NCBI RefSeq assembly: GCF_003315485.1
Contig: NZ_QNSE01000002.1
Location: forward strand, 186,001 to 250,000
Source of the DNA: Marinomonas rhizomae
GTDB lineage: Bacteria > Pseudomonadota > Gammaproteobacteria > Pseudomonadales > Marinomonadaceae
DNA: 64,000 nucleotides
Reading direction: 5' to 3'
The notes under the pieces: generated by a model
Seen by the model: the letters and a program-made list of their open reading frames with translations, nothing else
Databases searched by the model: none
What the model was told of the DNA's origin: nothing
Translations under genes and position numbers: made by a program
Part shown: positions 30,570 through 50,331 of the stretch, in pieces
Layout of the letters: the number at the start of each line of letters is the position of its first letter
How positions within the stretch are numbered: position 1 is the stretch's first letter

Positions 30570-31682
30570 ATGCGTAATTTAATGGTATTGGGCAAATTGG
30601 CGTTTGCTGGTTTGTTTGCTTTGTCTTTGGTCGCTTGTGGCGGATCAGAGAAAACAGAAGAAACCGCAAAGGTTGATAAAAAAGTAGAAACGATTCATTG
30701 GAAAATGGTCACCACTTGGCCAAAAAACTTTCCAGGTCTGGGTACTGCAGCTGAAGAATTAGCGAAAAACATTACAAAAATGTCTAACGGACGTTTAGAT
30801 ATTAAAGTTTATGCTGCAGGTGAGTTGGTTCCTGCATTAGAAGTTTTTGATGCGGTCTCTCGTGGTACGGCGGAAATTGGCCATAGTACGGCCTATTATT
30901 GGAAGGGTAAGGCTCCAGCGGTGCAGTTCTTTTCGTCTGTGCCTTTTGGTATGACGGCACAAGAATTTAATGCTTGGATTGAATACGGTGGTGGCTTAAA
31001 ACTGTGGGAAGAAGTGTATGCACCCTTTAATATTATACCTATGGCTGTTGGTAATACAGGCGCGCAAATGGGCGGTTGGTTTAACAAAGAAATCAATTCT
31101 CTAGCAGACTTCCAAGGCTTGAAAGTACGCATGCCTGGTCTGGGTGGCGAAGTGTTGAAAAAAGTAGGCGCGGTGACGGTTAACCTTCCAGGTAGCGAAA
31201 TGTTTACGGCACTTCAAACCGGTACGATTGATGCCACTGAGTGGGTGGGTCCTTATAATGACCTAGCATTTGGCTTGTACAAAGCGGCAAAATACTATTA
31301 TTACCCAGGTTGGCAAGAGCCAGGCTCTGCGGTTGAAGCGCTGATCAACAAAGATGCTTTCAATGCATTGCCAGACGATCTACAAGAGGTTGTTCGCTCA
31401 GCTGCACAACAAGCGAACTTGAATATGTTGAGCGAGTTTACTGCGCGTAATAATGCCGCCTTGAAGACTTTGGTCGATGAACATCATGTTATTTTGAAGA
31501 AGTTCCCGAAAGACCTTTTGGAAGCTTTGCGTGTAGCGTCTGATGAAACACAAAAAGAAGTGGCAGCTAACGACCCAATGAGCCAAAAAGTTTATGATTC
31601 GTTTACTGATTTTTTAACATCGGTTAGCGAGTGGCATGACATTTCTGAGCGTGCGTTTATTAATGCTCGCGCAACGGACTAA
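30570..31682 (+). CDS. TRAP transporter solute-binding lipoprotein, paralogue 1
   Basis: The 370-residue DctP-type binding protein has a lipoprotein signal ending in SLVACGGS, so it should be lipid-anchored at Cys23. The mature part carries the motifs of the TakP/FcbT1-like branch: WKMVTTWPKNFPGLG, YAAGELVPALEVFDAVSRG, the substrate-arginine segment GLKVRMPGLGGEVL and TGTIDATEWVGPYND. These proteins bind 2-oxo acids and other carboxylates for a sodium-driven DctQM permease. It is the first of four tandem paralogues and the most divergent at GMTAQEFNAWIEYGGG. CTGAGGGAAAATA is the ribosome-binding region. Confidence 0.92.
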   Translation: MRNLMVLGKLAFAGLFALSLVACGGSEKTEETAKVDKKVETIHWKMVTTWPKNFPGLGTAAEELAKNITKMSNGRLDIKVYAAGELVPALEVFDAVSRGTAEIGHSTAYYWKGKAPAVQFFSSVPFGMTAQEFNAWIEYGGGLKLWEEVYAPFNIIPMAVGNTGAQMGGWFNKEINSLADFQGLKVRMPGLGGEVLKKVGAVTVNLPGSEMFTALQTGTIDATEWVGPYNDLAFGLYKAAKYYYYPGWQEPGSAVEALINKDAFNALPDDLQEVVRSAAQQANLNMLSEFTARNNAALKTLVDEHHVILKKFPKDLLEALRVASDETQKEVAANDPMSQKVYDSFTDFLTSVSEWHDISERAFINARATD

Positions 31683-31714
31683 TGAGCTCGATTTAAAGAA
31701 CTAGTGAAACCAAC

Positions 31715-31744
31715 AAGCCCTGTTGTTGATTGATAACAGGGCTT
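31715..31744 (+). terminator. Intrinsic terminator after paralogue 1
   Basis: AAGCCCTGTT (31715-31724) pairs with AACAGGGCTT (31735-31744), followed by a T-rich stretch (ATTTTATTTTTT). Paralogue 1 is therefore probably a single-gene transcript. Confidence 0.85.
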
Positions 31745-31839
31745 ATTTTATTTTTTGTTTTTTTACTTTCTGATGAAAGAAAAAATGTTAAGTAAAGCGC
31801 TAATTTCCAGTGCAATTCATCTATTAGTGAGTACCGTGA

Positions 31840-32949
31840 ATGAACAAAATAAATATGTGGGTCAAAGCTTTTTTGGTTGGTCTCATGATGACGACTTTGG
31901 TTTCCTGTGGTGGATCTGAAGAGAAAGATACTGCAAAAGTTGAGAAAAAAGTCGATGTAATTCATTGGAAAATGGTAACGACTTGGCCGAAAAATGCTCC
32001 AGGTGTCGGAACAGGAGCGGAAACACTCGCTAAGAATATTAAAGAGATGTCGAACGGCCGTTTGGATATTAAAGTGTATGCTGCTGGTGAGCTTGTTCCT
32101 GCATTGGAAGTATTTGATGCGGTATCTCGTGGTACCGCGCAAATGGGCCATGGTTCTGCGTACTACTGGAAAGGAAAAGTACCGGCTGCACAGTTTTTTT
32201 CTACCGTTCCGTTTGGTTTTACAGCGCAAGAGTTTAATGCTTGGGTTGCTTATGGCGGAGGCTTAGAACTGTGGGAAGAAATCTATGCTCCGTTTAACTT
32301 AATTCCTATGGTAGCTGGTAATGCTGGCGTGCAAATGGGGGGATGGTTTAATAAAGAAATTAATTCGTTAGCCGATTTCCAAGGCTTGAAAATGCGTATG
32401 CCAGGGTTAGGTGGAGAAGTACTGAAAAAAGTCGGTGCATCGCCTATTACTTTACCTGCTAGCGAAGTTTTCACCGCGCTTCAAACTGGGACAATCGATG
32501 CTACAGAATGGGTTGGGCCTTATAACGATCTTGCGTTTGGTTTGTATAAAGCGGCTAAATATTATTACTACCCGGGCTGGCATGAGCCAGGCTCAGCGGT
32601 TGAAGCTATTTTTAACAAAGATGCTTTTGACGCGTTACCAAAAGATTTAAAAGCCATTGTGCACTCTGCAGCTCAACAAGCTAATTTAGACATGATCAAT
32701 GAGTTTACGGCACGTAATAATGCCGCTTTGCAAACCTTGGTAAATGAGCATCATGTGATTCTTAAGCCTTTCCCTCGTGACTTGTTAGAGGCGCTCAAAA
32801 AAGCGTCTGCCGAGACCCTAGAAGAAGTGGCCGCGAGTGATCCTGAAAGTAAAAAAGTCTATGAGTCATTCAAGAACTTTTTAGCCCCAGTAAGTGAATG
32901 GCATGATGTGTCTGAGCGTGCCTACATCAATGCGCGAGCAGATGACTAA
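31840..32949 (+). CDS. TRAP transporter solute-binding lipoprotein, paralogue 2
   Basis: This 369-residue tandem paralogue has the lipobox TLVSCGGS and the same block order as its neighbours. Differences lie at likely pocket positions (GHGSAYYW, GASPITLPASEVFTAL, MVAGNAGVQ). Its synonymous codon choice differs more from copies 1, 3 and 4 than those do from each other. The upstream region is short: a GCAATTCAT stretch like that in the copy 3 and 4 promoters lies only about 20 bases before the ATG, so the leader seen in the others is missing. The reading frame is intact and all motifs are kept. Confidence 0.92.
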   Translation: MNKINMWVKAFLVGLMMTTLVSCGGSEEKDTAKVEKKVDVIHWKMVTTWPKNAPGVGTGAETLAKNIKEMSNGRLDIKVYAAGELVPALEVFDAVSRGTAQMGHGSAYYWKGKVPAAQFFSTVPFGFTAQEFNAWVAYGGGLELWEEIYAPFNLIPMVAGNAGVQMGGWFNKEINSLADFQGLKMRMPGLGGEVLKKVGASPITLPASEVFTALQTGTIDATEWVGPYNDLAFGLYKAAKYYYYPGWHEPGSAVEAIFNKDAFDALPKDLKAIVHSAAQQANLDMINEFTARNNAALQTLVNEHHVILKPFPRDLLEALKKASAETLEEVAASDPESKKVYESFKNFLAPVSEWHDVSERAYINARADD

Positions 32950-32986
32950 GCGCTCCGCCTTTTAAAACGTCTAGTTAGTACTTCTT

Positions 32987-33019
32987 AAAGCTCCGTTATC
33001 TTTGATAGCGGGGCTTTTT
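32987..33019 (+). terminator. Intrinsic terminator after paralogue 2
   Basis: The 14 bases at 32987-33000 pair with 33004-33017 (two G-U pairs in RNA) around a three-base loop, and the stem ends in a T-run. The sequence is clearly related to the terminator after paralogue 3, which suggests both derive from one duplicated unit. Confidence 0.85.
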
Positions 33020-33074
33020 GCTTTCCTGAAACAGTCATTAAAAATAGCCAAAAGAAATAAATATCAAAAAGGTC

Positions 33075-33103
33075 TTGAGCGCTGGCGGCGCAATTCATAC
33101 TAT
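33075..33103 (+). promoter_or_regulatory. Sigma-70 promoter of paralogue 3
   Basis: TTGAGC (33075-33080) and TACTAT (33098-33103) are 17 bases apart. The block GCAATTCATACTATT around the -10 element recurs exactly in front of paralogue 4, at the same spacing from an identical -35. The rest of the spacer differs between the two copies, which suggests selection on the promoter elements. Confidence 0.65.
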
Positions 33104-33249
33104 TCAGTACACTTCGTGCATATAATATGAATTTCGGGTTCGAATTTTATCCTTAATTAAGGTTCTTACTCCTACACAAGTAGGGTTGTGTTGTTTGTTA
33201 TATGCACGCTAAGTTCAACAAAAATAACTAGTCTCCTGAGGGATAATCA

Positions 33250-34359
33250 ATGATAACAATAAAATCGTGGGGCAAACTGGCGTTGGTCGGTTTGGCTGCT
33301 GCTACCTTGGTAGCGTGTGGTGGATCAGAAGAAAAAGAAGCGGCAAAAGTAGAAAAAAAAGCTGAGGTGATTAACTGGAAAATGGTCACTACTTGGCCTA
33401 AAAACTTTCCTGGTTTGGGGACCGGAGCTGAAAATTTAGCAAAAAGCATTAATGAGATGTCCAATGGCCGCATTAATGTCAAAGTGTATGCGGCAGGCGA
33501 GTTGGTTCCTGCTTTAGAAGTGTTTGATGCGGTGTCTCGTGGTACCGCTCAAATGGGCCACGGTGCTGCTTATTACTGGAAAGGTAAAGCGCCAGCCGCA
33601 CAATTCTTCACGGCGGTACCGTTTGGCTTCACGGCGCAAGAAATTAATTCGTGGATTCATCACGGTGGTGGTTTAAAACTGTGGGAAGAAATTTATGCCC
33701 CTTTTAATTTGATTCCAATGGCAGCGGGTAATACGGGTGTACAAATGGGCGGGTGGTTCAATAAAGAGATTAACTCTTTGGCGGACTTCCAAGGCTTAAA
33801 AATGCGTATTCCTGGCCTAGGCGGCGAAGTCTTGAAGAAAGTGGGCGGTACACCAATTAACCTTCCCGGCGGCGAAATCTTTACGGCTCTACAATCAGGC
33901 ACTATCGATGCAACAGAGTGGGTGGGTCCTTATAACGATCTAGCATTTGGCTTGTACAAAGCGGCTAAATACTACTACTACCCTGGTTGGCATGAGCCTG
34001 GTTCTACGATGGAAGCGATTTACAACAAGGAAGCGTTCGAAGCCTTGCCAAAAGATTTACAGCTGATCGTACGTGCGGCTACTCGCCAAGCCAATGCTGA
34101 AATGTTAGATGAGTTTACTGCGTTGAATAATTCTGCATTGCAGACATTGGTCAATGAACACAACGTCATCTTAAAACCTTTCCCTGATGACGTGTTGCTG
34201 GCTCTGAAAAAAGCCTCCGCGGAAACACTGGAAGAAGTGGCAGCAGCCGATCCATTAAGCCAGAAGGTCTACGATTCGTTCAAAGACTTTGGTGCAAAAG
34301 TAAGAGCGTGGCATGAAGTGTCAGAACGCGCTTATATCAATGCACGTGAATTGAATTAA
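33250..34359 (+). CDS. TRAP transporter solute-binding lipoprotein, paralogue 3
   Basis: The 369-residue third copy has the lipobox TLVACGGS. Diagnostic blocks are kept (WKMVTTWPKNFPGLG, ATEWVGPYND), with the arginine in GLKMRIPGLGGEVL. It differs from copy 4 mostly at synonymous sites. The exception is 34000-34090, where the two genes are almost identical, which looks like recent gene conversion. The ATG follows CCTGAGGGATAATCA, the same translation-start leader as copy 4 in its last part. It has its own promoter at 33075 and its own terminator. Confidence 0.92.
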   Translation: MITIKSWGKLALVGLAAATLVACGGSEEKEAAKVEKKAEVINWKMVTTWPKNFPGLGTGAENLAKSINEMSNGRINVKVYAAGELVPALEVFDAVSRGTAQMGHGAAYYWKGKAPAAQFFTAVPFGFTAQEINSWIHHGGGLKLWEEIYAPFNLIPMAAGNTGVQMGGWFNKEINSLADFQGLKMRIPGLGGEVLKKVGGTPINLPGGEIFTALQSGTIDATEWVGPYNDLAFGLYKAAKYYYYPGWHEPGSTMEAIYNKEAFEALPKDLQLIVRAATRQANAEMLDEFTALNNSALQTLVNEHNVILKPFPDDVLLALKKASAETLEEVAAADPLSQKVYDSFKDFGAKVRAWHEVSERAYINARELN

Positions 34360-34402
34360 GCGCCTTTAATCTTTTTCGATTTGAACTAACTTATTGACCT
34401 GT

Positions 34403-34437
34403 AAAGCTCTGCTATCGCCGATAGCAGAGCTTTTTAT
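34403..34437 (+). terminator. Intrinsic terminator after paralogue 3
   Basis: A perfect 14-base-pair stem (34403-34416 with 34420-34433) encloses a GCC loop and ends in TTTTTATTT. It is a close relative of the terminator at 32987-33019. Confidence 0.9.
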
Positions 34438-34483
34438 TTAGAGAAGATTACTGTTTTAACTGAAAAATAAAATTAAAAAAGGC

Positions 34484-34512
34484 TTGAGCCTTGATATTGC
34501 AATTCATACTAT
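34484..34512 (+). promoter_or_regulatory. Sigma-70 promoter of paralogue 4
   Basis: TTGAGC (34484-34489), a 17-base spacer and TACTAT (34507-34512) match the promoter of paralogue 3 element for element. The leader from the -10 to the ATG is about 125 bases. No riboswitch-like fold was recognised in it. Confidence 0.65.
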
Positions 34513-34636
34513 TAAAAAGGCGTGGCAAATAAGCTATGACTATAGAGTTGGTTGGTCGACTCGGCTTTGCTTCGTTCATTGCAGTAAGCAAAGGTATATA
34601 TAAAAATAAAGCTATTCAGTCTTTTAGGGATAATCA

Positions 34637-35746
34637 ATGAGCACAATAAAAATGTGGGGAAAACTGGCATTAGTCGGTTTAACGGCGGCAAGCTTAGTTG
34701 CTTGTGGTGGATCAGAAGAAAAAGTAACGGCAAAGGCTGAGAAAGCGGCAGATGTTATTCACTGGAAAATGGTCACAACATGGCCGAAAAATTTTCCAGG
34801 GTTAGGTACAGCGGCAGAACATTTAGCGGAAAATATTACCGCAATGTCCAATGGGCGCTTAGTGGTAAAAGTGTACGCTGCAGGTGAACTGGTTCCTGCG
34901 TTGGAAGTGTTTGATGCGGTGTCTCGTGGTACTGCACAAGTTGGTCATGGCGGTGCTTTTTACTGGAAAGGCAAAGCTCCAGCGGCACAGTTTTTCTCCG
35001 CCGTACCTTTTGGTTTTACCGCACAAGAAATGAACTCATGGCTTCATTATGGTGGTGGCCTGAAGTTGTGGGAAGAGACTTACGCCCCTTTTAATCTTAT
35101 CCCAATGGCAGCAGGTAATACTGGGGTGCAAATGGGGGGGTGGTTCAATAAAGAGATCAATTCCCTTGCAGACTTCCAAGGCTTAAAAATGCGTCTGCCA
35201 GGTTTAGGTGGTGAAGTGCTGAAAAAAGTAGGTGGTACACCCGTTAACTTGCCGGGTAGTGAAATCTTCACCGCATTGCAAACAGGTACTATTGATGCAA
35301 CAGAGTGGGTGGGTCCATACAACGATTTAGCATTTGGCTTGTACAAAGCGGCCAAATTCTACTACTACCCAGGTTGGCATGAGCCGGGTTCTACGATGGA
35401 AGCGATTTACAACAAGGAAGCGTTCGAAGCCTTACCAAAAGATCTACAGCTGATCGTACGTGCGGCAACTCGCCAAGTGAGTGCTGATATGCTGGATGAA
35501 TTTACCGCGCGTAACAATGCCGCGTTAGAAACGCTAGTGAATGAACATCATGTGGCTTTGAAACCATTTCCAAAAGAAGTATTGGTGGCATTGAAAAAAG
35601 CCTCTGCTGAAACGTTAGATGAAGTAGCTGCCGCGGATCCAATGAGCCAAAAAGTCTACAACTCGTTTAAAGACTTCAATAGTAAAGTCAGAGCATGGCA
35701 CGAAGTGTCTGAGAGGGCTTTTATCAATGCTCGTGAGCTTGAGTAA
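34637..35746 (+). CDS. TRAP transporter solute-binding lipoprotein, paralogue 4
   Basis: The 369-residue fourth copy has the lipobox SLVACGGS and the substrate-arginine segment GLKMRLPGLGGEVL. It has GHGGAFYW where copies 2 and 3 have a Ser or Ala and a Tyr, and KFYYYPGW where the others have KYYYYPGW. These changes near the expected ligand cleft could alter specificity. All family motifs remain, so it should be functional. A strong bidirectional terminator separates it from the convergent tctA gene. Confidence 0.92.
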   Translation: MSTIKMWGKLALVGLTAASLVACGGSEEKVTAKAEKAADVIHWKMVTTWPKNFPGLGTAAEHLAENITAMSNGRLVVKVYAAGELVPALEVFDAVSRGTAQVGHGGAFYWKGKAPAAQFFSAVPFGFTAQEMNSWLHYGGGLKLWEETYAPFNLIPMAAGNTGVQMGGWFNKEINSLADFQGLKMRLPGLGGEVLKKVGGTPVNLPGSEIFTALQTGTIDATEWVGPYNDLAFGLYKAAKFYYYPGWHEPGSTMEAIYNKEAFEALPKDLQLIVRAATRQVSADMLDEFTARNNAALETLVNEHHVALKPFPKEVLVALKKASAETLDEVAAADPMSQKVYNSFKDFNSKVRAWHEVSERAFINARELE

Positions 35747-35780: not shown

Positions 35781-35819
35781 AAAAAGTCTTCATGGTTAGA
35801 TTGACCATGAAGACTTTTT
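35781..35819. terminator. Bidirectional terminator between paralogue 4 and tctA
   Basis: A perfect 16-base-pair stem (35781-35796 with 35804-35819) around a seven-base loop begins with an A-run and ends with a T-run. It serves the two convergent genes. Confidence 0.9.
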
Positions 35820-35848: not shown

Positions 35849-37336
35849 TTATTTTTTAAACTTTTTGATCAGCTTAGGAGCAACTAGTGCGGCTACGGTT
35901 GCGATCGCTAAGATATAAGTCATGGTGCCGTTAAGTAAGATAGACCAATTACCACCACTGATAGACAGTGCGCGACGTAAGTTTTCTTCCAATACTTCGC
36001 CGAGAACCAAGCCCAAGATCACGGGGGCTAAGGAGAAGCCTAGCTTACGTAGAATGAAGGCAAAAATACCTAAACCAATCATGAAGAATAAGTCGAACGA
36101 ATCGCCATGGATGGAGTAGATGCCAACGAATGTAAGCATGACAATTATTGGGACTAGGTAAGACTGCTTAATAGACAGCAAGCGAACAAATAAACCAATA
36201 AGCGGCAAGTTCATAATAAGCAACGCAATGTTACCAATGAACATAGAGGCAATTAGACCCCAAGCAATTTGTGGTTGTTGTTCAAATAATAGTGGACCTG
36301 GTGTGATGTTAAACATCAACAACGCGCCTAATAGAATCGCTGTGGTACCACTACCTGGAATACCCAATGTCAACATAGGTAGCATAGAACCTGCTGCAGA
36401 GGCATTGTTTGCCGCTTCTGGAGCGGCAAGACCACGAATGTCGCCTTCCCCAAAGTGTTCGTTGTTGCCTTCTGCGAAGCGTTTTTCTGTGCCGTACGCT
36501 ACTGCACTCGCAATAGAAGCCCCTGTACCTGGTAAAACACCAATTAAAAAGCCAGATAAAGTAGAGCGTAATACTACCCATTTAACGGCTAGCATATCAG
36601 ACAGACTCACAAAGCTTTTGCCAACAGGAGTCATCTTTAAGTCGTTACGTGCCCAGCTTTCAAGAAGAATCAGTACTTCACTGATGGCAAACATACCAAT
36701 AACGACGACCAAAAAGTCTACGCCATCGAACAAGTTTGGAATGCCCATGGTGAAACGCAGAATGCCTGTACCTGAATCGATACCAATGGTTGCTAGTAGT
36801 AAACCAATTACTACACCAACGATGGTTTTGATTGGACGTTTGCCGACCATAGTTGCCAAACACGTGAAGGCAAAGATCATCAACCAAACATACTCAGATG
36901 GACCAAATTCAATAGCTAAGCGGCTAAGTAATGGTGCAAAAATCACCATAAGCAACAAGGCGCCCATACTGCCAAAGAATGAGGAAACGGCAGATAATGC
37001 TAATGCTCTACCACCTTCACCGCGCTTTGCCATAGGATAACCATCTAAAGTGGTCATGATGGCGCCAGCGTCACCTGGTACGTTGAGCAAAATACTGGAA
37101 ATACGACCACCGTATTCGGCACCGTAATAAACCCCTGCCAACATGATCAGGGCTGACTCAGGTGGTAAACCGATGGAGTAGGCCAAAGGTAATAAAATGG
37201 CAACACCATTGATTGGCCCAATACCGGGTAGTGAACCGATTAACGTACCAAAAAAACAACCTGCTAGAACCAGCCCCAAGTTAATCGGGGTCAGGGCTAC
37301 TGAGAAGCCTATCGATAGAAAATGTAATACGTCCAT
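35849..37336 (-). CDS. tctA: Tripartite tricarboxylate transporter, large permease TctA
   Basis: The 495-residue permease has about eleven membrane segments. It keeps the TctA signature near the N-terminus (GTLIGSLPGIGPINGVAILLPLAY) and its internal repeat (LIGVLPGTGASIASAVAYGTEKR), with LGIPGSGTTAILLGAL in the second half. It forms the channel of a binding-protein-dependent, ion-driven carboxylate transporter; citrate is the classic substrate. It overlaps the tctB stop by one base and is the last gene of tctCBA. Confidence 0.94.
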   Translation of the reverse strand: MDVLHFLSIGFSVALTPINLGLVLAGCFFGTLIGSLPGIGPINGVAILLPLAYSIGLPPESALIMLAGVYYGAEYGGRISSILLNVPGDAGAIMTTLDGYPMAKRGEGGRALALSAVSSFFGSMGALLLMVIFAPLLSRLAIEFGPSEYVWLMIFAFTCLATMVGKRPIKTIVGVVIGLLLATIGIDSGTGILRFTMGIPNLFDGVDFLVVVIGMFAISEVLILLESWARNDLKMTPVGKSFVSLSDMLAVKWVVLRSTLSGFLIGVLPGTGASIASAVAYGTEKRFAEGNNEHFGEGDIRGLAAPEAANNASAAGSMLPMLTLGIPGSGTTAILLGALLMFNITPGPLLFEQQPQIAWGLIASMFIGNIALLIMNLPLIGLFVRLLSIKQSYLVPIIVMLTFVGIYSIHGDSFDLFFMIGLGIFAFILRKLGFSLAPVILGLVLGEVLEENLRRALSISGGNWSILLNGTMTYILAIATVAALVAPKLIKKFKK

Positions 37337-37779
37337 TAGAAGATGTCTCCGAAAAGTAGGCCTGTTGGAACGTTAAGCTCCATCACATCGGCTAATAGGA
37401 AATAGCTGACTAAACTTAAAGCAAGAGCATAAAAAAAGGCTTTCAGAGGTTTTTCACCAAATAACCAGCTAAAAATGGCACCCACAATAGTAGTTGCAAC
37501 AATGAAACCTGCTTCTTCAAATAAGAAGGCATATACCACCATAAGTACAAGACCACTGATAATTTTAATCAGCACATCTTTACGTGGTAACCAAGCGTTA
37601 GCATCAGGCTTTACAATTAGGCGTACGCTACAGATAGCGAGCACGATAGATAGAATGATAGGGAATGCCTTGGGACCAAGGGGTTCATACTGAAACGGGA
37701 CGTTAAAATGATAAGCTGTCCAGGCGATTAGCCCGGACAGTACCAATAATGCGCCCGCAAAAATGCGGTCATATAACAT
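37336..37779 (-). CDS. tctB: Tripartite tricarboxylate transporter, small permease TctB
   Basis: The 147-residue protein has four predicted membrane helices. It includes the FNVPFQYEPLGPKAFPIILSIVLAICSVRL region typical of TctB (the xGPxxFP motif). TctB is the small, poorly conserved membrane subunit that works with TctA. It lies 24 bases downstream of tctC and is translationally linked to tctA. Confidence 0.9.
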   Translation of the reverse strand: MLYDRIFAGALLVLSGLIAWTAYHFNVPFQYEPLGPKAFPIILSIVLAICSVRLIVKPDANAWLPRKDVLIKIISGLVLMVVYAFLFEEAGFIVATTIVGAIFSWLFGEKPLKAFFYALALSLVSYFLLADVMELNVPTGLLFGDIF

Positions 37780-37803
37780 GTTATCGCCTCAATTAACGAC
37801 GTA

Positions 37804-38781
37804 TTATTGAATTAAGCCAGCTTCTTTCGCTAGACCGCGCATGAAGCCAACGCGCTCTTTGATGTAGCTCTCTAACGCTGGACCAGACATAGTGAATGGC
37901 ACTAGGTTTTGATCTGCAACGGCTTTTTGGAAAGCTGGATTGTTGTAGGCTTTTTTGAATTGATCGGCCCAGTAATTGTAGGCTTCATCAGATACTTTGG
38001 GCCCTAAGTAGTAACCACGAAGAATCGTCCATTCTGCGTCGAAACCTTGCTCAATAGCGGTAGGGTATTTAGAGAATTCACCTTTTAAGCGCTCTGGAGA
38101 CATGATGCCAAGCACTTTTATTTTGCCTGCTTCAAGTAAGCCTTTCATTTCGCCTACATCACCTGGGTATACTTTGATGTGACCACCCAATAGGGCTGCG
38201 CTTGCTTCACCGCCCCCTTCATAAGCAACGTAACGCATTTTCTTAGGATCTACACCAGCAGATTTAACGACAATGGCGGCTTTCATCCAATCTTGGCTAC
38301 CGACACCACCACCAGCACCTAAGACGAATTTGCTTGGGTCTTTTTTGATGTCGTCAACCAATTCTTTAAGATTGTTCCATGGTGCATCAGCACGAACCAT
38401 GATAGCACCGTAGTCAACACCTGCTGTACCAACCCAACGAGCATCGTTCTCGTCTAGGCCTTGTCCAAATTTACCTTGAGCGATGTTAAGCAAAGATCCA
38501 GAGCTAAAAGCGACTAGTTTGTTTGGGTCATCTGGCGTAGTGGAGTTTATGTAGTTGTAAGCGACTGCACCGACACCACCTGGCATGAAGGTTACTGCCA
38601 TAGGAATGTCTGTTAGGCCTGCGTTGGCAAAACCTGTAGAAAGGATACGGCAGGTTAAATCAAAACCACCACCTGGTTTAGCAGGAGCAATACAAGTTGG
38701 TTTATTTGGTTCAAAAGCACTGGCGTTTAGGGCAGCGGTAAGGCCGCCGACCAACAATAGGGAGGCAATTTTGGCTTTCAT
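37804..38781 (-). CDS. tctC: Tripartite tricarboxylate transporter, binding protein TctC
   Basis: This 325-residue Bug-family periplasmic binding protein has a signal peptide (MKAKIASLLLVGGLTAALNASAFE). CIAPAKPGGGFDLTCRIL is the conserved Bug carboxylate-binding loop, and VTFMPGGVGAVAYNYI and FVLGAGGGVGSQDW are further family blocks. It delivers a di- or tricarboxylate to TctAB. The gene is divergent from tctD, whose product probably controls it. Confidence 0.94.
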   Translation of the reverse strand: MKAKIASLLLVGGLTAALNASAFEPNKPTCIAPAKPGGGFDLTCRILSTGFANAGLTDIPMAVTFMPGGVGAVAYNYINSTTPDDPNKLVAFSSGSLLNIAQGKFGQGLDENDARWVGTAGVDYGAIMVRADAPWNNLKELVDDIKKDPSKFVLGAGGGVGSQDWMKAAIVVKSAGVDPKKMRYVAYEGGGEASAALLGGHIKVYPGDVGEMKGLLEAGKIKVLGIMSPERLKGEFSKYPTAIEQGFDAEWTILRGYYLGPKVSDEAYNYWADQFKKAYNNPAFQKAVADQNLVPFTMSGPALESYIKERVGFMRGLAKEAGLIQ

Positions 38782-38817
38782 TTATTATTCTCCAAATTTC
38801 TTTTTGTTTTATTTTGC

Positions 38818-38833
38818 TGTACAAGGTTGTACA
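38818..38833. promoter_or_regulatory. Paired TGTACA operator candidate, tctC-tctD
   Basis: TGTACA occurs twice (38818-38823 and 38828-38833), separated by four bases. The ten-base period is one helical turn, which is typical for binding of an OmpR-class response-regulator dimer. It lies in the 115-base region between the divergent tctC and tctD genes, so TctD is the natural candidate. It lies upstream of tctC, within about 50 bases of its start. Confidence 0.5.
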
Positions 38834-38896
38834 GGAGTGAGCAAAGTTACTCCTTTAAACTGACACTAACCTGACAAGAAGAGATAGGGTTCCGTC

Positions 38897-39565
38897 ATGC
38901 GTATGTTATTAATTGAAGACAACGAGAGTTTGGCCGACTCGATTCGTGTGTATTTCAGGAATTTAGGTCATCCTATTGATTGGATTGGTTCAGTTGAAAA
39001 AGCCGAAGCGAGTCTGTCTTTTGACTACTTTGATTTGTTGATTTTAGACATAAATTTACCTGGCAAAAGTGGCTTCCAACTATTGCAGAGCTTACGTAGC
39101 AAGGGTAATCGCATCCCTGTTTTGGTACTAACTGCTCGTACTGAAGTGGATGACAGAGTTAGTGCTTTAGACTTTGGAGCTGATGATTATTTGGCAAAAC
39201 CTTTTGATTTTCGTGAGCTAGCGGCTCGTTGTCGTGCGCTTTATCGACGTGAACGAGGTGGCGCGAGTAACGAAATACAGTGTGGTAATTTAGTGTATGA
39301 CTTGGCGGCACATTCGGCCAAAGTGAATAATGTCACTTTAGATTTACGACCAAGAGAGCTGCAATTGTTGGAGCTTTTTCTGAAAAATCTGGATCGTGTG
39401 CTCACTAAAGATGACATCTCCAATCGGCTCTACAGCTACGATGAAGCCTATACCCCCAATGCCATTGAACAAACCCTAACACGTTTAAGAAAACAGTTGG
39501 ACGGCTCGACTTTGATCATCAAAACCATTCGTGGCTTAGGGTATTTGGCCCATGTCGATGACTGA
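38897..39565 (+). CDS. tctD: Response regulator TctD, OmpR family
   Basis: The 222-residue protein has a receiver domain with phospho-acceptor Asp51 (FDLLILDINLPGKSG) and the KPF loop. A C-terminal winged helix follows (LRPRELQLLELFLKNLDRVLTKDDISNRLYSYDEAYTPNAIEQTLTRLRKQL). Next to tctCBA and overlapping a TctE-type kinase gene, it is expected to activate the carboxylate transporter when the substrate is present. An AGGG ribosome-binding site precedes the ATG. Confidence 0.93.
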   Translation: MRMLLIEDNESLADSIRVYFRNLGHPIDWIGSVEKAEASLSFDYFDLLILDINLPGKSGFQLLQSLRSKGNRIPVLVLTARTEVDDRVSALDFGADDYLAKPFDFRELAARCRALYRRERGGASNEIQCGNLVYDLAAHSAKVNNVTLDLRPRELQLLELFLKNLDRVLTKDDISNRLYSYDEAYTPNAIEQTLTRLRKQLDGSTLIIKTIRGLGYLAHVDD

Positions 39566-40943
39566 GAAAAGCTATTCAATCCGTTCCCGAATGTTAGGTC
39601 GTTCAGCTTTGTTGCTGCTGTCTATTTTTCTAATTTTAAGTCTGGGCGTTTGGCACTATGCTCGTCAATCCGCCAATTATTCTTACGACCGACTGCTCAA
39701 TAGTGCCAGCTTGTCTATTATGGAAGGTTTGCACGTTTACGATAAACAAGTGGATTTAGATTTGCCTTATGCGGCGTTTGAAATGATGCAGCTTGCCGAT
39801 GAAGATAAGGTGTTTTATCAGGCGTTAGGTACACAAGGCGAGCTGATTACCGGTTATCCAGACATGCCTTTGCCTAATGAACTTAACGAAGATTCGGCTA
39901 TCGCTTTTTATAATGCGCATTATTTATCTGAAGAGGTGCGTGTGGTAATTCGCCATAAAAGGCTATCAGAGCCAGTGGTGTCTGGTTGGGTCACTGTGGT
40001 GCTGGCGCAAACGCTTAGAGCGCGGCATAAGATGATGAATGAGATTCTATACCGAAGCTTCGCTGTACTGTTTGGTATTATGGCTTGTGTAATGATTGTC
40101 TTGTGGGTGGCGATTAATCGTGCTCTTGAACCGCTGAGTTCAATCTCTAAAAGTTTGGCTTCTCACTCGCTACTTTCTGCTGAACCCATTCGGCCGACAC
40201 CGATTCAAGAAGTATCGCCATTAGTAAGTGCGATCAATGATTATCAAGCGCAGCTGTTATCCAACTTAGCTGTGATGAAACGTTTTATTGCCGATGCTAG
40301 TCATCAAATTCGTACTGCACAAAGTGCGACTCAAGCTCAATTAGACATTGCTAGCCAAAGCGAAAATTTAGCGGATTTGCCAGAACATTTAAGTAAAATT
40401 CGACAAGAGCATGAACGTTTGACACGTTTAACCAATCAGTTGCTAACTCACGCTATGGTGGTGCATCGAGGTGATACGGTGGTTACCGAGCAAATGGATA
40501 TCGAAGATGTTATGAAGAAACTATTAACAGAATGCGTGCGAGACAATGCCCATCGTATGATAGATTTTTCTTACCAATGCGAGCAGCAACTACCTTTGTT
40601 TATGGGCGATTCCATTAGCTTACGAGAAGCCGTTCGTAACCTCTTGGATAACGCAATTTATTACGGTCCTGAGGAGAATCAGATTGAGATTTGTCTACAA
40701 ATGGATGCCTCATGTATTGATATTATTATTGACGATGCTGGTTCAGGCATTCCTATTGAATGGAGAGAAAAAGCATTAGAACGTTTTCAGCGCTTGGAAA
40801 ATGGACTTAATGGTTCAGGTCTTGGTCTGTCTATTGTGACCAGTGTAGCAGAAGCTCATGGCGGTAAATTTTTCTTGGAAGACAGCCCCTTAGGTGGGCT
40901 TCGGGCAAGAATATGCCTGCCAAAAGAGAGGACGTTATGCTGA
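39552..40943 (+). CDS. tctE: Sensor histidine kinase TctE
   Basis: The 463-residue kinase has membrane segments at about 18-36 and 168-190 with a periplasmic TctE-type domain between them. His251 sits in DASHQIRTAQSA, and the ATPase domain has NLLDNAIYYGP, DDAGSGIP and GSGLGLSIV. The usual proline five residues after the phospho-histidine is replaced by Ala256. The gene overlaps tctD by 14 bases, and its end overlaps the next gene's start by seven bases. It probably senses the tricarboxylate substrate, directly or through a binding protein. Confidence 0.92.
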   Translation: MSMTEKSYSIRSRMLGRSALLLLSIFLILSLGVWHYARQSANYSYDRLLNSASLSIMEGLHVYDKQVDLDLPYAAFEMMQLADEDKVFYQALGTQGELITGYPDMPLPNELNEDSAIAFYNAHYLSEEVRVVIRHKRLSEPVVSGWVTVVLAQTLRARHKMMNEILYRSFAVLFGIMACVMIVLWVAINRALEPLSSISKSLASHSLLSAEPIRPTPIQEVSPLVSAINDYQAQLLSNLAVMKRFIADASHQIRTAQSATQAQLDIASQSENLADLPEHLSKIRQEHERLTRLTNQLLTHAMVVHRGDTVVTEQMDIEDVMKKLLTECVRDNAHRMIDFSYQCEQQLPLFMGDSISLREAVRNLLDNAIYYGPEENQIEICLQMDASCIDIIIDDAGSGIPIEWREKALERFQRLENGLNGSGLGLSIVTSVAEAHGGKFFLEDSPLGGLRARICLPKERTLC

Positions 40944-42004
40944 AGCGAATGAGCTTTTTATTGATATCCTTGATCATGATTGCGAGTAAGGTTATTGCTG
41001 AAACACCCACATTACCAACTGTATGGGAAGCAGATAGATTAACCATATACAGTGCAACGGATTTAAAAGCAATCTTCCCTGTATTAGAGGCTTTTAAAAC
41101 ACAAAATCCTAATATAAAACTAGAATATCGCGAATTTAATACTCAAGAGCTAGATCGTGCCATTAGAGCTAAACCGTTAGAGGATCAGCCTGATGTGGTA
41201 ATTAGCTCGGCCATGGACCTGCAGGTTCGCTTGGTGAATGATGGGTATGCGCAGCCAGTATTAGGTGAAGCCGTTATAGGTTTACCTAGTTGGGCTAATT
41301 GGCGTAATGAAGTCATTGGCTTTACCTACGAGCCGATTGTTTTTGTTTACAACAAGCTAGCTTTTCAAGGGAAAGCGGTTCCTCTTACCCATGAATCATT
41401 GGCGAGCACCATGCGTATCGAGGATAGTTTTTTTGCTCATAAAGTTGGCTCTTATGATGCTCGCCGTTCAGGGATTGGCTATTTAGTAGCAACGCAAGAT
41501 GAAGTGACATCAAGCATTAGTGGCCGCTTACAAGAAAGCTTGGGACGTGCTCGTACTAAGGTTTATGGCCAAACGGCAAGCTTATTAGATGATATTGCCA
41601 CTGGTGAGTTGATCTTTGGTTACAACCTTTTAGGATCCTATTCTTTTGCTCGTGAAAAACGAGACAATCGTATTGGTGTAGTGATTCCTCAGGACTATGC
41701 TTTAGTAGTGAGTCGTGCTGCGTTTATTTCCAAACAAGCTAAGCATGTTTCCAATGCCCAGCGCTTTGTGAATTTCTTGATATCTAAGGAAGGGCAGGGT
41801 GTGATCGCGAAAAAAAGTGAGCTGGTGGCTTTATTCCCGGATATTGATGATTTGGTATCTCAGCAAGATACACAAGATCAAACGATTAACTTTCATCCCA
41901 TTCCGTTAGGGCCAGCTTTGATGGTATATCTTGATGACTCGAAGCGCCGACGTTTTATTAAAGCGTGGGAAAACGCCTTGCTATCCATTAACGAAGATCA
42001 GTAA
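40937..42004 (+). CDS. Orphan periplasmic binding protein, ABC Fe3+-type fold
   Basis: From the ATG at 40937 (preceded by GAGAGGACGTT) the product has 355 residues with a signal peptide ending in VIAE. LTIYSATDLKAIFPVLEAFKTQNPNIKLEYREFNTQEL is the start of a type-2 binding protein like those for iron or spermidine. No ABC permease or ATPase gene is near. Its start lies inside the end of tctE, so it is translated with tctDE. I infer a role as an accessory sensor for TctE; ordinary transport with distant partners is the alternative. Confidence 0.8.
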   Translation: MLKRMSFLLISLIMIASKVIAETPTLPTVWEADRLTIYSATDLKAIFPVLEAFKTQNPNIKLEYREFNTQELDRAIRAKPLEDQPDVVISSAMDLQVRLVNDGYAQPVLGEAVIGLPSWANWRNEVIGFTYEPIVFVYNKLAFQGKAVPLTHESLASTMRIEDSFFAHKVGSYDARRSGIGYLVATQDEVTSSISGRLQESLGRARTKVYGQTASLLDDIATGELIFGYNLLGSYSFAREKRDNRIGVVIPQDYALVVSRAAFISKQAKHVSNAQRFVNFLISKEGQGVIAKKSELVALFPDIDDLVSQQDTQDQTINFHPIPLGPALMVYLDDSKRRRFIKAWENALLSINEDQ

Positions 42005-42087: not shown

Positions 42088-42771
42088 TTAGTCGTTCATG
42101 CTACCCAATTCAAGCAGTGTCGCGTTGCCACCGATCGCTGTTGTGTTGTTGGACACGGTGCGTTCAGTAACAAAGCGTAGAACATAGTGTGGTTTGGCAA
42201 TCACGCTTAAATTTTTTGCATCGGTTTCTTCAACCAATTGGCAAATTAAGCCGCTTTTTGCTGTAAGACGTTGGCTTAGCTGTTGAGCTTGAGCTGAGTC
42301 GCAAAGCGTTGCGATACCTGCAAGGTGATTAGCTTCGATCAAAGAATCTTGCGCGGACTCTGCAATGTTTTGCACAACACCTTCTGCGACAACTGGTGCA
42401 ATCATGTCCATGATCTCTTGGCCAGCTAGCCCCACTGTAATGACTGGGTTACCGGCAATCAGCGCAGCAAACACTTGGCCAACTAAACCTATTTTTGCCA
42501 TATCACCTTCAAGAGAAGACATGCAAAGAAACACGCCACGGCCTTGGTTAGACAGTTCATTACGCTCGCCAGTTGGTCCTGGCATAACGCGTGTTTCAGC
42601 AATAGATTGCTTCGCGTTGTCAATTTGCCAAGCGGCCATTTTGCGTTGTGCTTCCGGGAAAGCGTTTAAGGCTTTTTGCAGTTTTTCTGCTCGGCCATTG
42701 ACGCCAAGTTTGTCCCATGCTTCGAAGACTTTCTGAGCGACCTGAATTTGGATAGGTTGTACGATTGTCAT
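42088..42771 (-). CDS. Separate PutA C-terminal ALDH-superfamily domain
   Basis: The 227-residue protein matches in outline the C-terminal ALDH-superfamily domain found at the end of long (type B) PutA proteins. It has GPTGERNELSNQGRGVFLC, then GQVFAALIAGNPVIT, and ends in TERTVSNNTTAIGGNATLLELGS, like the PutA C-terminus. It lacks a catalytic cysteine. The gene starts 14 bases after the putA stop with its own GGGGAG ribosome-binding site, so it is co-expressed with putA. In fused proteins this domain closes the substrate-channelling tunnel; here it would have to do so as a separate chain. Confidence 0.8.
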   Translation of the reverse strand: MTIVQPIQIQVAQKVFEAWDKLGVNGRAEKLQKALNAFPEAQRKMAAWQIDNAKQSIAETRVMPGPTGERNELSNQGRGVFLCMSSLEGDMAKIGLVGQVFAALIAGNPVITVGLAGQEIMDMIAPVVAEGVVQNIAESAQDSLIEANHLAGIATLCDSAQAQQLSQRLTAKSGLICQLVEETDAKNLSVIAKPHYVLRFVTERTVSNNTTAIGGNATLLELGSMND

Positions 42772-48203: not shown

Positions 48204-49592
48204 TCAGTCTGCATAGACTTGTTCAGGCAGCCAAGTCGCTAGATCTGGCCAAATGGATAACATGATTAGTACTAACACCTGAATAAGAATAAAAGGTAAA
48301 ACCCCTTTATAAATAGACTGAGTTTTCAGTTCTGGCGGCGCTACGCCACGCAAGTAAAATAGCGCAAATCCGAATGGTGGAGTGAGGAATGATGTTTGTA
48401 AATTAATGGCCATCATAATACCCAACCACACTGGATCTAAGCCCATTGCTAACAATACTGGCGCAACAATAGGTACAACCACAAAAGTGATTTCTATGAA
48501 GTCTAGAATGAAGCCAAGGAAGAACATTAGCAACATCACGACGATCATTGCGCCAACAACGCCACCAGGAAGTTGTGAGAAGAAGTCTTGAATCAACTCT
48601 TCGCCACCAAAGCCACGGAACACCAATGAAAATAAAGATGCACCGATCAGAATCATGAACACCATGCAGGTGACTTTTGTGGTCGAGTACACTGCATCTT
48701 TTAAGGTTGGGAAGCTTAACTTGCCACTTCCTAGAGCTAGCAACGCCGCACCTAGTGCGCCAACACCTGCTGCTTCAGTTGGTGTGGCAATACCGCTAAG
48801 AATTGACCCCAATACAGCAAAGATAAGCACCAAAGGTGGCACCAAGCCTTTAAGTAGTTGAACGGCTAAAGACTCTGTTGAGCCATTGCGCAATTCGTCA
48901 CGAGGAACCGCGGGTGCTTTGTGCGGCTGCAACCAAGCGACCATGATGACGTAAAGAATATAAAGCCCAACTAAAATTAAGCCAGGAATCAAGGCACCAA
49001 CAAACAAATCTCCTACAGAGATGGTTTTAGGAGAGAAAATGCCCATTTCCAATTGCGCTTTTTGATACGCATTGGACATCACATCGCCTAACAGAACCAA
49101 TGCGATGGATGGTGGAATGATTTGACCTAACGTACCTGTCGCACAAATAGTCCCTGCGGCTAAAGCTGGATCGTAGCCGCGACGCAGCATGGTGGGTAAC
49201 GAAATCATACCCATAGTTACCACGGTTGCACCCACAATACCGGTACTTGCCGCCAGTAACATACCTACTAAAATAACCGAAATACCCAAGCCACCACGTA
49301 ACGTACCAAACAGCATCGCCATGGAGTCGAGTAGTTTTTCTGCCAATTTTGATTTTTCGAGCAAAACACCCATTAGGACAAAAAGCGGGACAGCGATCAG
49401 CGTTTCATTGCCGATGATACCGAACAAACGGTTTGGCAAAGCCTCCAAAAAGACACCATCAAAAGTGCCGAACATGGAGCCTACAGCGGCAAAAATAAGC
49501 GCCGTACCACCTAGAGAAAATGCGACAGGGTAACCAAATAACAAGCAGACACAAACGCCGGCAAAGAGCCATAAAGGAATAAATTCAGCCAT
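48204..49592 (-). CDS. dctM: TRAP transporter large permease
   Basis: The 462-residue protein has about twelve membrane segments. Its key blocks are LFGYPVAFSLGGTALIFA, LLAASTGIVGATVVTMGMISLPTMLRRGYDPALAAGTICATGTLGQIIPPSI and DFIEITFVVVPIVAPVLLAMGLDPVWLGIMMAINLQTSFLTPPFGFALFYLRG. These are characteristic of the DctM branch once labelled 'mannitol/chloroaromatic' and used with TakP/FcbT1-like binding proteins. It is the sodium-driven channel subunit. It abuts dctQ, but no binding-protein gene is next to the pair. Confidence 0.93.
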   Translation of the reverse strand: MAEFIPLWLFAGVCVCLLFGYPVAFSLGGTALIFAAVGSMFGTFDGVFLEALPNRLFGIIGNETLIAVPLFVLMGVLLEKSKLAEKLLDSMAMLFGTLRGGLGISVILVGMLLAASTGIVGATVVTMGMISLPTMLRRGYDPALAAGTICATGTLGQIIPPSIALVLLGDVMSNAYQKAQLEMGIFSPKTISVGDLFVGALIPGLILVGLYILYVIMVAWLQPHKAPAVPRDELRNGSTESLAVQLLKGLVPPLVLIFAVLGSILSGIATPTEAAGVGALGAALLALGSGKLSFPTLKDAVYSTTKVTCMVFMILIGASLFSLVFRGFGGEELIQDFFSQLPGGVVGAMIVVMLLMFFLGFILDFIEITFVVVPIVAPVLLAMGLDPVWLGIMMAINLQTSFLTPPFGFALFYLRGVAPPELKTQSIYKGVLPFILIQVLVLIMLSIWPDLATWLPEQVYAD

Positions 49593-50128
49593 TAGTTTTG
49601 TCCTTTAGCATGTCTAGTAATGGGGGAACGCGCCGCAGTTACCACACCAATATTTTTCAAAATATCCGCAGAACCTTGAATGATCATGCTCACCATCATG
49701 ATAGGAATAAGCGTTTTTAGCAGATACACAAAAGGTAAACCGCCAGGCTCTGGAGAGGTTTCCAGTACACGCCACGAAGCACTCACATAATCTAGGCTTA
49801 AATAGGCGGTATAAAGTGTGAATGGCAAAAGGAAGAAAATGCCGCCAATGATATTTACCCATGCTTTTTTAGTGACAGAAAAATCACGATAAAAAACATC
49901 AACACGTACGTGCTCATCATCTTTAAAGGTATAGGCCGCTCCTAACATAAAGACCGTTGCATGCATATAAAGCACGGACTCTTGTAGTGCGATCGCACCA
50001 ATATCAAAGCCATAACGCAAAAGCACGATGAGACAGGTAAACAGCATCATCGCTAACGTAAGCCAAGCAACGCATCGCCCCATATAATGGGAAATCGCCT
50101 CAGCCGAACTGACTAGTTTGTTTAACAT
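49592..50128 (-). CDS. dctQ: TRAP transporter small permease
   Basis: From the ATG at 50128 the product has about 178 residues and four membrane helices. LSLDYVSASWRVLETSPEPGGLPFVYLLKTLIPIMMVSMIIQGSADILKN is the conserved C-terminal half of the DctQ branch paired with TakP-like systems. A GTG at 50140 gives four extra residues. The stop overlaps the dctM start by one base. A stem-loop at 50332-50358 lies upstream. Confidence 0.88.
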   Translation of the reverse strand: MLNKLVSSAEAISHYMGRCVAWLTLAMMLFTCLIVLLRYGFDIGAIALQESVLYMHATVFMLGAAYTFKDDEHVRVDVFYRDFSVTKKAWVNIIGGIFFLLPFTLYTAYLSLDYVSASWRVLETSPEPGGLPFVYLLKTLIPIMMVSMIIQGSADILKNIGVVTAARSPITRHAKGQN

Positions 50129-50331
50129 TAAAATACCCACAGTTTTTAATCATTTTTATCGGAAGTTTAGCGAGGCCACAGTGCCTATAAAATCCGGACA
50201 GTTAGTCTATTGGATAACGCCACTCTTGGGAATATTACAGATGGCTTGAAAGGCAAGTTAGAAGGTATTTACAGGAAATTGAGCGTTTTTTTCGAGTAAA
50301 ACAGTGAGCGATGATTCACTGTATGTCAGAA

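What the first reader, a model, noticed from the sequence alone, without database searches (positions are those of the whole stretch)
30570..35746. Four tandem, intact TRAP solute-binding lipoproteins without membrane subunits
Four consecutive genes of 369-370 codons encode the same TakP/FcbT1-like binding protein with all motifs kept, but no dctQ or dctM lies beside them. A normal TRAP operon has one binding protein per permease. Residue changes cluster at probable ligand-contact blocks (GHSTAYYW, GHGSAYYW, GHGAAYYW, GHGGAFYW), so the array may widen the substrate range of a shared permease. The expansion is seen directly; the purpose is inference.
Basis: partly seen in the sequence, partly recalled or inferred. 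Interest (0 to 1): 0.75.

Follow-up and report, generated by a model that had tools for sequence, protein, structure and literature searches.

The report
Four binding proteins share one transporter
A marine bacterium carries four near-copies of one nutrient-catching protein that very probably feed a single membrane importer a few genes away; such parts are usually paired one-to-one, so the locus is a good test of whether this kind of importer can be given several interchangeable catchers.

Summary
In detail: four intact DctP-family (TakP-like) lipoproteins lie in tandem at 30570-35746, and no dctQM touches them. It has no binding protein beside it and is the only such non-fused permease in the genome. 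Co-occurrence in the genus (of 48 genomes 40 have both, 7 neither, 1 incomplete genome dctM only) and neighbourhood elsewhere (61 of 112 genomes convergent within 3 kb; eight named-genome loci with both in one same-strand cluster) make it the likely cognate permease. The array has 1-4 copies in 40 genomes. 51 of 53 spacers hold terminators, so the copies are separate transcription units. The residues that bind 2-oxo acid and cation in TakP are kept in all 94 array proteins (one backbone contact is W or F). Cavity-wall residues differ between paralogue groups, F99 of the fourth being found in no other group, but the excess of wall changes is statistically weak. Best reading: a 2-oxo-acid TRAP importer with a tandem set of binding proteins on one QM. 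Sharing is inferred, well supported; a widened substrate range is plausible and untested.

The parts
30570..31682 (+). SBP copy 1 (group A): DctP-family lipoprotein, wall residues L47 T97 Y99 T153 V245 (TakP numbers)
31715..31744 (+). intrinsic terminator after copy 1
   Evidence: dG -19.0
31840..32949 (+). SBP copy 2 (group B): wall residues V47 S97 Y99 A153 V245
32987..33017 (+). intrinsic terminator after copy 2
33075..33103 (+). promoter-like TTGAGC-N17-TACTAT before copy 3, also before the G032 orthologue; 8 of 12 consensus matches, below the cut-off of the scan
33250..34359 (+). SBP copy 3 (group C): wall residues L47 A97 Y99 T153 M245
34403..34433 (+). intrinsic terminator after copy 3
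34484..34512 (+). promoter-like TTGAGC-N17-TACTAT before copy 4; 8 of 12 consensus matches, below the cut-off of the scan
   Evidence: read by eye from the letters
34637..35746 (+). SBP copy 4 (group D): wall residues L47 G97 F99 T153 M245
   Evidence: AlphaFold2 model
35781..35819. terminator after copy 4 (listed on the minus strand, found on the plus strand)
48204..49592 (-). dctM (462 aa), the unpaired permease taken here as the partner of the array
49592..50140 (-). dctQ (182 aa), GTG start, upstream of dctM

Best explanation
The array and the dctQM at 48204-50140 are one TRAP importer of the TakP type (2-oxo acids such as pyruvate and longer monocarboxylic 2-oxo acids, bound together with a cation). 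A single ancestral binding-protein gene, which faced the dctQM genes, was duplicated in tandem inside the genus, and other genes lie between the two parts there. Four lipoprotein binding proteins, each on its own transcript, dock on one QM. Shown: the genes, the pairing in other genomes, the within-genus expansion, own terminators, kept ligand- and cation-binding residues, and cavity-wall residues fixed in several paralogue groups. Inferred: that all four dock on this QM, that the ligand is a 2-oxo acid, and that the wall changes (T/S, A or G at 97; Y or F at 99; L, V or M at 47; T or A at 153; V or M at 245) tune which side chains fit, with separate promoters deciding which copy is used.
For: Genome bookkeeping: 25 of 29 DctP genes have a DctM within 3 kb and only the four array genes do not. 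Of 24 non-fused DctM genes only the window's lacks a DctP; the 5 long fused DctM each sit beside a TAXI binding protein. Genus: array SBP in 40 of 48, orphan-type DctM in 41 of 48, both absent in the same 7; Fisher p 1e-7, not corrected for kinship. On one contig in 38 of 40, convergent in 38 of 38, 6.1-23.9 kb apart (coordinates). Order: of 112 genomes with both rows printed, 90 on one contig, 63 within 3 kb, 61 of these convergent. In 38 of 80 named-genome loci that hold both genes, 30 are convergent and 8 are same-strand clusters: six SBP-dctQ-dctM (Grimontia, Photobacterium x2, Enterovibrio x2, Aliivibrio) and two dctQ-dctM-SBP (Shewanella, Paraferrimonas). Nearest own-genome paralogues of SBP and DctM lie in one canonical operon, C10:83344-86336 (the next DctM is close behind, 50% against 53%). 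Tree: 94 array genes in one clade, SH-aLRT 99. Terminators in 51 of 53 spacers against 1 of 53 shuffled. Contacts. Fold of copy 4: the 14 best PDB chains are TakP-like, including 2hzl and 7ug8, titled as 2-oxo-acid binders.
Against: No binding, docking or expression data exist. Wall enrichment is weak (p 0.13; 0.023, 0.12 and 0.36 one-sided, uncorrected), and position 97 also varies among single-copy relatives (A in 15, G in 7 of 22). Pairing is not universal: in the order, by my reading, 177 of 293 have both, 9 the SBP alone, 11 the DctM alone; 22 of 112 have them on different contigs and 12 more than 40 kb apart; 16 of 80 named loci with 10 kb on both sides show no DctM. Eight of 40 genomes have one copy and copy number changes often, which fits loose duplication. 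c3 and c4 share a conversion-like tract.
Confidence: 0.63

Rival explanations
1. Subdivision by regulation or dosage: the four SBPs bind the same 2-oxo acids and serve the same QM, but their separate promoters answer different conditions or raise total capture capacity. The wall changes are near-neutral.
For: Terminators after every window copy and promoter-like sites before copies 3 and 4; direct contacts do not vary except W/F at a backbone contact; low dN/dS in four of six pairs; weak wall enrichment; G97 also in 7 of 22 single-copy relatives or paralogues.
Against: Wall residues are fixed inside paralogue groups: 97G with 99F in 11 of 11 group D and in none of the other 83 array proteins; F99 in none of 22 outside rows; 153A in 11 of 11 group B and no other array protein.
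Confidence: 0.27
2. Only one copy serves the window's QM. Others dock on a second TRAP permease, such as the paralogous operon at G000:C10:83344, or act as ligand sensors rather than importers.
For: Cross-docking between close TRAP systems has been proposed for DctP and IctQM in Pseudomonas aeruginosa (PMC12599236, Discussion passage read); the paralogous DctM is 53% identical.
Against: That operon has its own SBP, only 43-46% identical to the array; array copies are far closer to one another (75-87%), and array and window-type DctM are present or absent together in 47 of 48 genomes.
Confidence: 0.07
3. Transient, near-neutral tandem duplication kept by chance: copies come and go and have no distinct role.
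For: Array size 1-4 in 40 genomes; one decayed copy (G023_2, two in-frame stops).
Against: 93 of 94 copies are open; in the four window pairs where it could be estimated dN/dS is 0.05-0.10 with dS near saturation, so they were held under selection for a long time.
Confidence: 0.03

Closest known systems
TakPQM (Rhodobacter sphaeroides 2-oxo-acid TRAP; PDB 2hzk/2hzl)
   Same: SBP family, fold, the six ligand/cation positions (W/F at 215), long C-terminal helix predicted for copy 4 (335-367)
   Different: TakP has dctQ- and dctM-like genes immediately downstream (Gonin 2007, passage read); here one to four SBP lipoproteins, convergent to and apart from dctQM, each with its own terminator
IctPQM / DctPQM of Pseudomonas aeruginosa
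   Same: the only TRAP case met in my searches where a second SBP is proposed to serve one QM
   Different: there as cross-talk between two full systems (PMC12599236 Discussion passage); here a tandem array with one QM
Multi-SBP ABC transporters and orphan Bug/TctC proteins of TTT systems
   Same: several binding proteins for few permeases (PMC5812351 passages; Thomas 2010 cited in PMC12599236, not read)
   Different: other transporter families; most Bug genes are described as orphans without membrane genes nearby

Membership tests
TRAP SBP, DctP family (PF03480) | profile match over the curated cut-off | tested here: met
   four of four, 197-212 bits against 23.4
TakP-type 2-oxo-acid SBP | Tyr100, Gln156, Arg177, Glu214, Trp215 backbone, Glu240 | tested here: met
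   Y, Q, R, E, E in 94 of 94 array proteins; 215 is W in 76 and F in 18
TakP-type 2-oxo-acid SBP | nearest solved fold is TakP-like | tested here: met
   ranks 1-14 are chains of 2hzk/2hzl, 7ug8, 4pet, 5cm6, 4yic, 4yzz at 38-42% identity, TM (target) 0.88-0.91; model mean pLDDT 78.5; copy 4 only
TakP-type 2-oxo-acid SBP | binds 2-oxo acids with a cation | not testable with these tools
   needs protein
TakP-type 2-oxo-acid SBP | helix-swapped dimer | tested here: inconclusive
   long C-terminal helix predicted; dimer not modelled
complete TRAP transporter | small and large membrane subunit for the SBP | tested here: met
   dctQ and dctM at 48204-50140 by Pfam, linked to the SBP by gene pairing in other genomes; docking itself not tested
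canonical TRAP operon | one SBP per QM, co-directional | tested here: not met
   four SBPs, opposite strand, 12.5 kb from dctM, own terminators

The most novel reading that the evidence does not exclude
A combinatorial TRAP importer: four separately expressed binding proteins with graded cavities (T, S, A, G at one wall position, and F for Y beside it in the last), perhaps also able to mix as helix-swapped heterodimers, all serve one QM. Lineages of the genus would set their 2-oxo-acid range by adding or dropping SBP genes without touching the permease.
Probability: 0.37. Interest if true: 0.65.

Novelty: new variant of a known kind. Interest (0 to 1): 0.5.

Why it matters
In TRAP transporters an SBP and its membrane part are held to be usually unique partners (PMC12599236, passage read). 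A natural series of one to four paralogous SBPs with one QM, in 40 genomes of one genus, offers a ready test: does TRAP allow exchangeable SBPs as some ABC importers do, and which SBP surface must stay fixed for docking while the cavity changes? It also warns that TRAP SBPs that look like orphans may have their permease on the opposite strand some genes away.

Tried and rejected
Rejected: that the array has no permease; that a TAXI system could be the partner (each of the 5 fused DctM has its own TAXI SBP nearby); that the adjacent TctABC could be the partner (it has its own TctC and TTT is another family, a judgement from knowledge; and the full TTT block was found in only 5 of the 40 fetched loci and the window, with parts at the edge of 3 more); that the array is one operon (terminators).

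Led nowhere: literature for tandem or multiple SBPs on one TRAP permease gave no described case in this library. That is a statement about those searches only: the library lacks most subscription journals, and of the hits I read only the passages named in the report. One search found no passage; passages of PMC12632250 and PMC11668362 did not bear on it.

Limits: print only the best rows, and searches scored at most 5 or 6 candidates per genome. In one search I entered 114 SBP and 132 DctM rows; 13 printed SBP rows (my count) and some DctM rows without a printed partner, and all same-genus rows, were left out before the count. In one search, 42 of 80 loci showed no DctM in the fetched DNA; 26 of these lack a full 10 kb on both sides and 16 have it (one of the 16 is L209, a Marinomonas whose DctM is about 12 kb away). 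Group membership was read off the tree, which uses the same sequences, and 39 of the 94 genes were left out of the four groups. One search used a pattern that was too strict and was replaced. One search failed and was replaced. In the alignment, 14 of the 22 outgroup and paralogue rows were wrong reading frames; searches used that alignment. I rebuilt it with correct rows and the counts and p values given here came out the same. The paper lists A213 as a wall residue where the chain has T.
Full report
WHAT IS THERE. Four ORFs at 30570-31682, 31840-32949, 33250-34359 and 34637-35746 (+) encode DctP-family binding proteins of 370/369/369/369 aa. All four begin with a lipoprotein signal ending in CG. 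They are 76-87% identical over the mature part; dN/dS is 0.05-0.10 in the four of six pairs where dS could be estimated (1.5-2.8, near saturation), and could not be estimated for c2-c3 and c2-c4. I read this as old copies held by selection. Spacers are 157, 300 and 277 bases and each carries a strong terminator; a fourth follows the last gene.

The same window holds dctQ (49592-50140) and dctM (48204-49592) on the minus strand, by Pfam. Genome-wide there are 29 DctP matches. I paired them by place with the DctM matches (31 rows: 24 non-fused genes, one of them split into two rows; 5 long fused genes; 1 weak row of 28.5 bits that I set aside). 25 DctP have a DctM within 3 kb; the four array genes do not. 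Of the 24 non-fused DctM, matched by 24 DctQ, only the window's lacks a DctP. The five long fused DctM each lie beside a TAXI-family SBP. So the array and this dctQM are the only unpaired TRAP parts found in the genome (34 contigs, rated 100% complete).

CO-OCCURRENCE. In 48 genomes of the genus, array-type SBPs (69% identity or more to copy 3) are in 40 and window-type DctM (85% or more) in 41; 7 genomes lack both, and the one with DctM alone is 77% complete. Fisher p is 1e-7 without correction for kinship. In 38 of 40 genomes at least one array gene shares a contig with dctM; all 38 are convergent, 6.1-23.9 kb apart, median 7.6 kb. Between them lie a proline-utilisation gene (my reading of the sequence), an AraC-type regulator and a quinone-reductase-like gene in most loci that reach so far, with a TctABC/two-component block in some.

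PAIRING IN OTHER GENERA. In 293 genomes of the order (drawn evenly, 118 genera, at least 13 of our genus among them) the SBP is in 186 and the DctM in 188 at the thresholds used. By my reading of the two tables 177 have both, 9 the SBP alone, 11 the DctM alone. Outside the genus 9 of 177 genomes with the SBP had more than one match. Of 112 genomes with both rows printed, 90 have them on one contig, 63 within 3 kb, and 61 of those are convergent, typically about 0.6 kb apart; 22 are on different contigs and 12 more than 40 kb apart. In 80 loci of named genomes, 38 hold both genes: 30 convergent, 8 on the same strand; of the 42 without DctM, 16 have 10 kb on both sides. Six of the eight same-strand loci read SBP-dctQ-dctM (Grimontia, two Photobacterium, two Enterovibrio, Aliivibrio) and two read dctQ-dctM-SBP (Shewanella, Paraferrimonas). 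Two cluster layouts and a convergent layout join the same SBP and QM types. I take this as strong evidence of cognate partners.

EXPANSION. 94 array genes from 40 genomes were extracted: 8 genomes with one, 14 with two, 14 with three, 4 with four. 93 are open; G023_2 has two in-frame stops. All 94 form one clade against orthologues of the order (SH-aLRT 99, quick method), so the duplications happened within the genus. The nine genomes outside the genus with more than one match were looked at: seven (of two families) have the second copy far away or on another contig, G232 has a separate tandem pair with one copy broken, and G219 a broken piece 3.8 kb off. A Halothiobacillaceae bin, L233, has a tandem pair. 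So tandem SBPs are not strictly unique to this genus, but arrays of three or four were seen only there. In G025, G038 and G039 a 3.5-kb stretch interrupts the array.

TRANSCRIPTION. 51 of 53 spacers inside arrays hold a hairpin with a T-run, against 1 of 53 after mononucleotide shuffling; 41 of 41 last genes (40 genomes, G013 in two pieces) are followed by one. Copies 3 and 4 have promoter-like sites of 8 of 12 matches, below the cut-off of the general scan, which itself found fewer promoter-like sites than its shuffles (6 against 9.4). Promoters are therefore inferred.

LIGAND SITE. In TakP the six binding residues are Tyr100, Gln156, Arg177, Glu214, Trp215 (backbone) and Glu240, and the cavity is lined by F40, I47, V97, Y99, T153, A212, A213, P243 and V245 (PMC1839085: sections 5 and 7 and passages read). 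In 94 of 94 proteins Y, Q, R, E and E are kept, and 215 is W in 76 and F in 18. Walls in the window copies: c1 L T Y T V, c2 V S Y A V, c3 L A Y T M, c4 L G F T M for positions 47, 97, 99, 153 and 245. By group: D has 97G and 99F in 11 of 11, C has 97A and 99Y in 16 of 16, B has 153A and 47V/M in 11 of 11, A has 97T/S in 17 of 17. In 22 rows outside the array, 21 from the order and one paralogue, 97 is A in 15 and G in 7, and 99 is Y in 22: F99 is special to group D, G97 is not. Statistics are modest: in the window copies 5 of 9 walls and 0 of 6 contacts vary against 96 of 319 columns (p 0.13 and 0.18); D against C 2 walls in 9 disjoint columns (one-sided p 0.023), B against A 2 in 22 (p 0.12), A+B against C+D 1 in 15 (p 0.36), uncorrected (repeated on a clean alignment). 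The AlphaFold2 model of copy 4 (mean pLDDT 78.5) is nearest to 5cm6, 4pet, 4yzz, 2hzl and 7ug8; the titles of 2hzl and 7ug8 name 2-oxo-acid binding. That 4pet and 5cm6 are pyruvate complexes is recalled, not seen, since their titles were cut.

HOW IT PROBABLY WORKS. Periplasmic 2-oxo acids are caught with a cation by one of four lipoproteins and handed to the one QM. Which acids are caught depends on which copies are expressed and on their cavity walls. The first clause is family knowledge; the rest is inference. Rivals are division of labour by regulation or dosage (0.27), other partners (0.07) and near-neutral duplication (0.03).

KNOWN OR NEW. Every component is a known kind. What differs is four SBPs per QM, their separate transcripts and their distance. 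A 2025 paper calls SBP-membrane pairing in TRAP usually unique and proposes one case of cross-use (PMC12599236, Discussion passage). My searches showed no described TRAP array of this kind in the open-access library. I call it a new variant of a known kind.

Noticed in passing
33880-34120 and 35267-35507: Copies 3 and 4 share a conversion-like tract, up to 97% identical per 90 bases with a 47-base exact run, against 79% overall; the same stretch in G032 reaches 88%.
   Followed up: partly
G000:C6:55164-57351 (L019, L022) and G000:C10:51124-53230 (L021, L024): Two more TRAP loci of the same genome have two tandem DctP genes before one QM; the pairs are 72% and 48% identical. Multi-SBP TRAP loci may be a habit of this genome.
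   Followed up: partly
42088-42771 (-): A 227-aa ORF after the putA-like gene (1052 aa) with no Pfam match at E 0.001, found beside putA in 34 of 40 fetched loci (the other six are short stretches) at 46-97% identity; it reads like a detached aldehyde-dehydrogenase-like tail of PutA (the likeness is my reading).
   Followed up: partly
50370-51737 (-): A 455-aa membrane permease-like protein upstream of dctQ with no Pfam match at E 0.001.
   Followed up: no
35849-42004: A TctABC-type transporter, a response regulator and kinase, and an ABC-type binding protein form a block that lies between array and dctQM in some genomes of the genus and not in others.
   Followed up: partly
L188:4384-7867 (G025), likewise G038 and G039: A 3.5-kb insert splits the array of three genomes; in G025 it holds a GntR/MocR-like regulator and two aldolase-like ORFs by my reading of the translations.
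   Followed up: partly
array SBPs: Residues after the lipobox cysteine are Gly-Gly in 90 of 91 scored proteins. By the E. coli sorting rule (recalled) this would favour the outer membrane, odd for a binding protein that serves an inner-membrane permease.
   Followed up: no
L208 / G023:C18:261169: One array copy is decaying (two TAG) in the genome matched to Marinomonas phaeophyticola.
   Followed up: no
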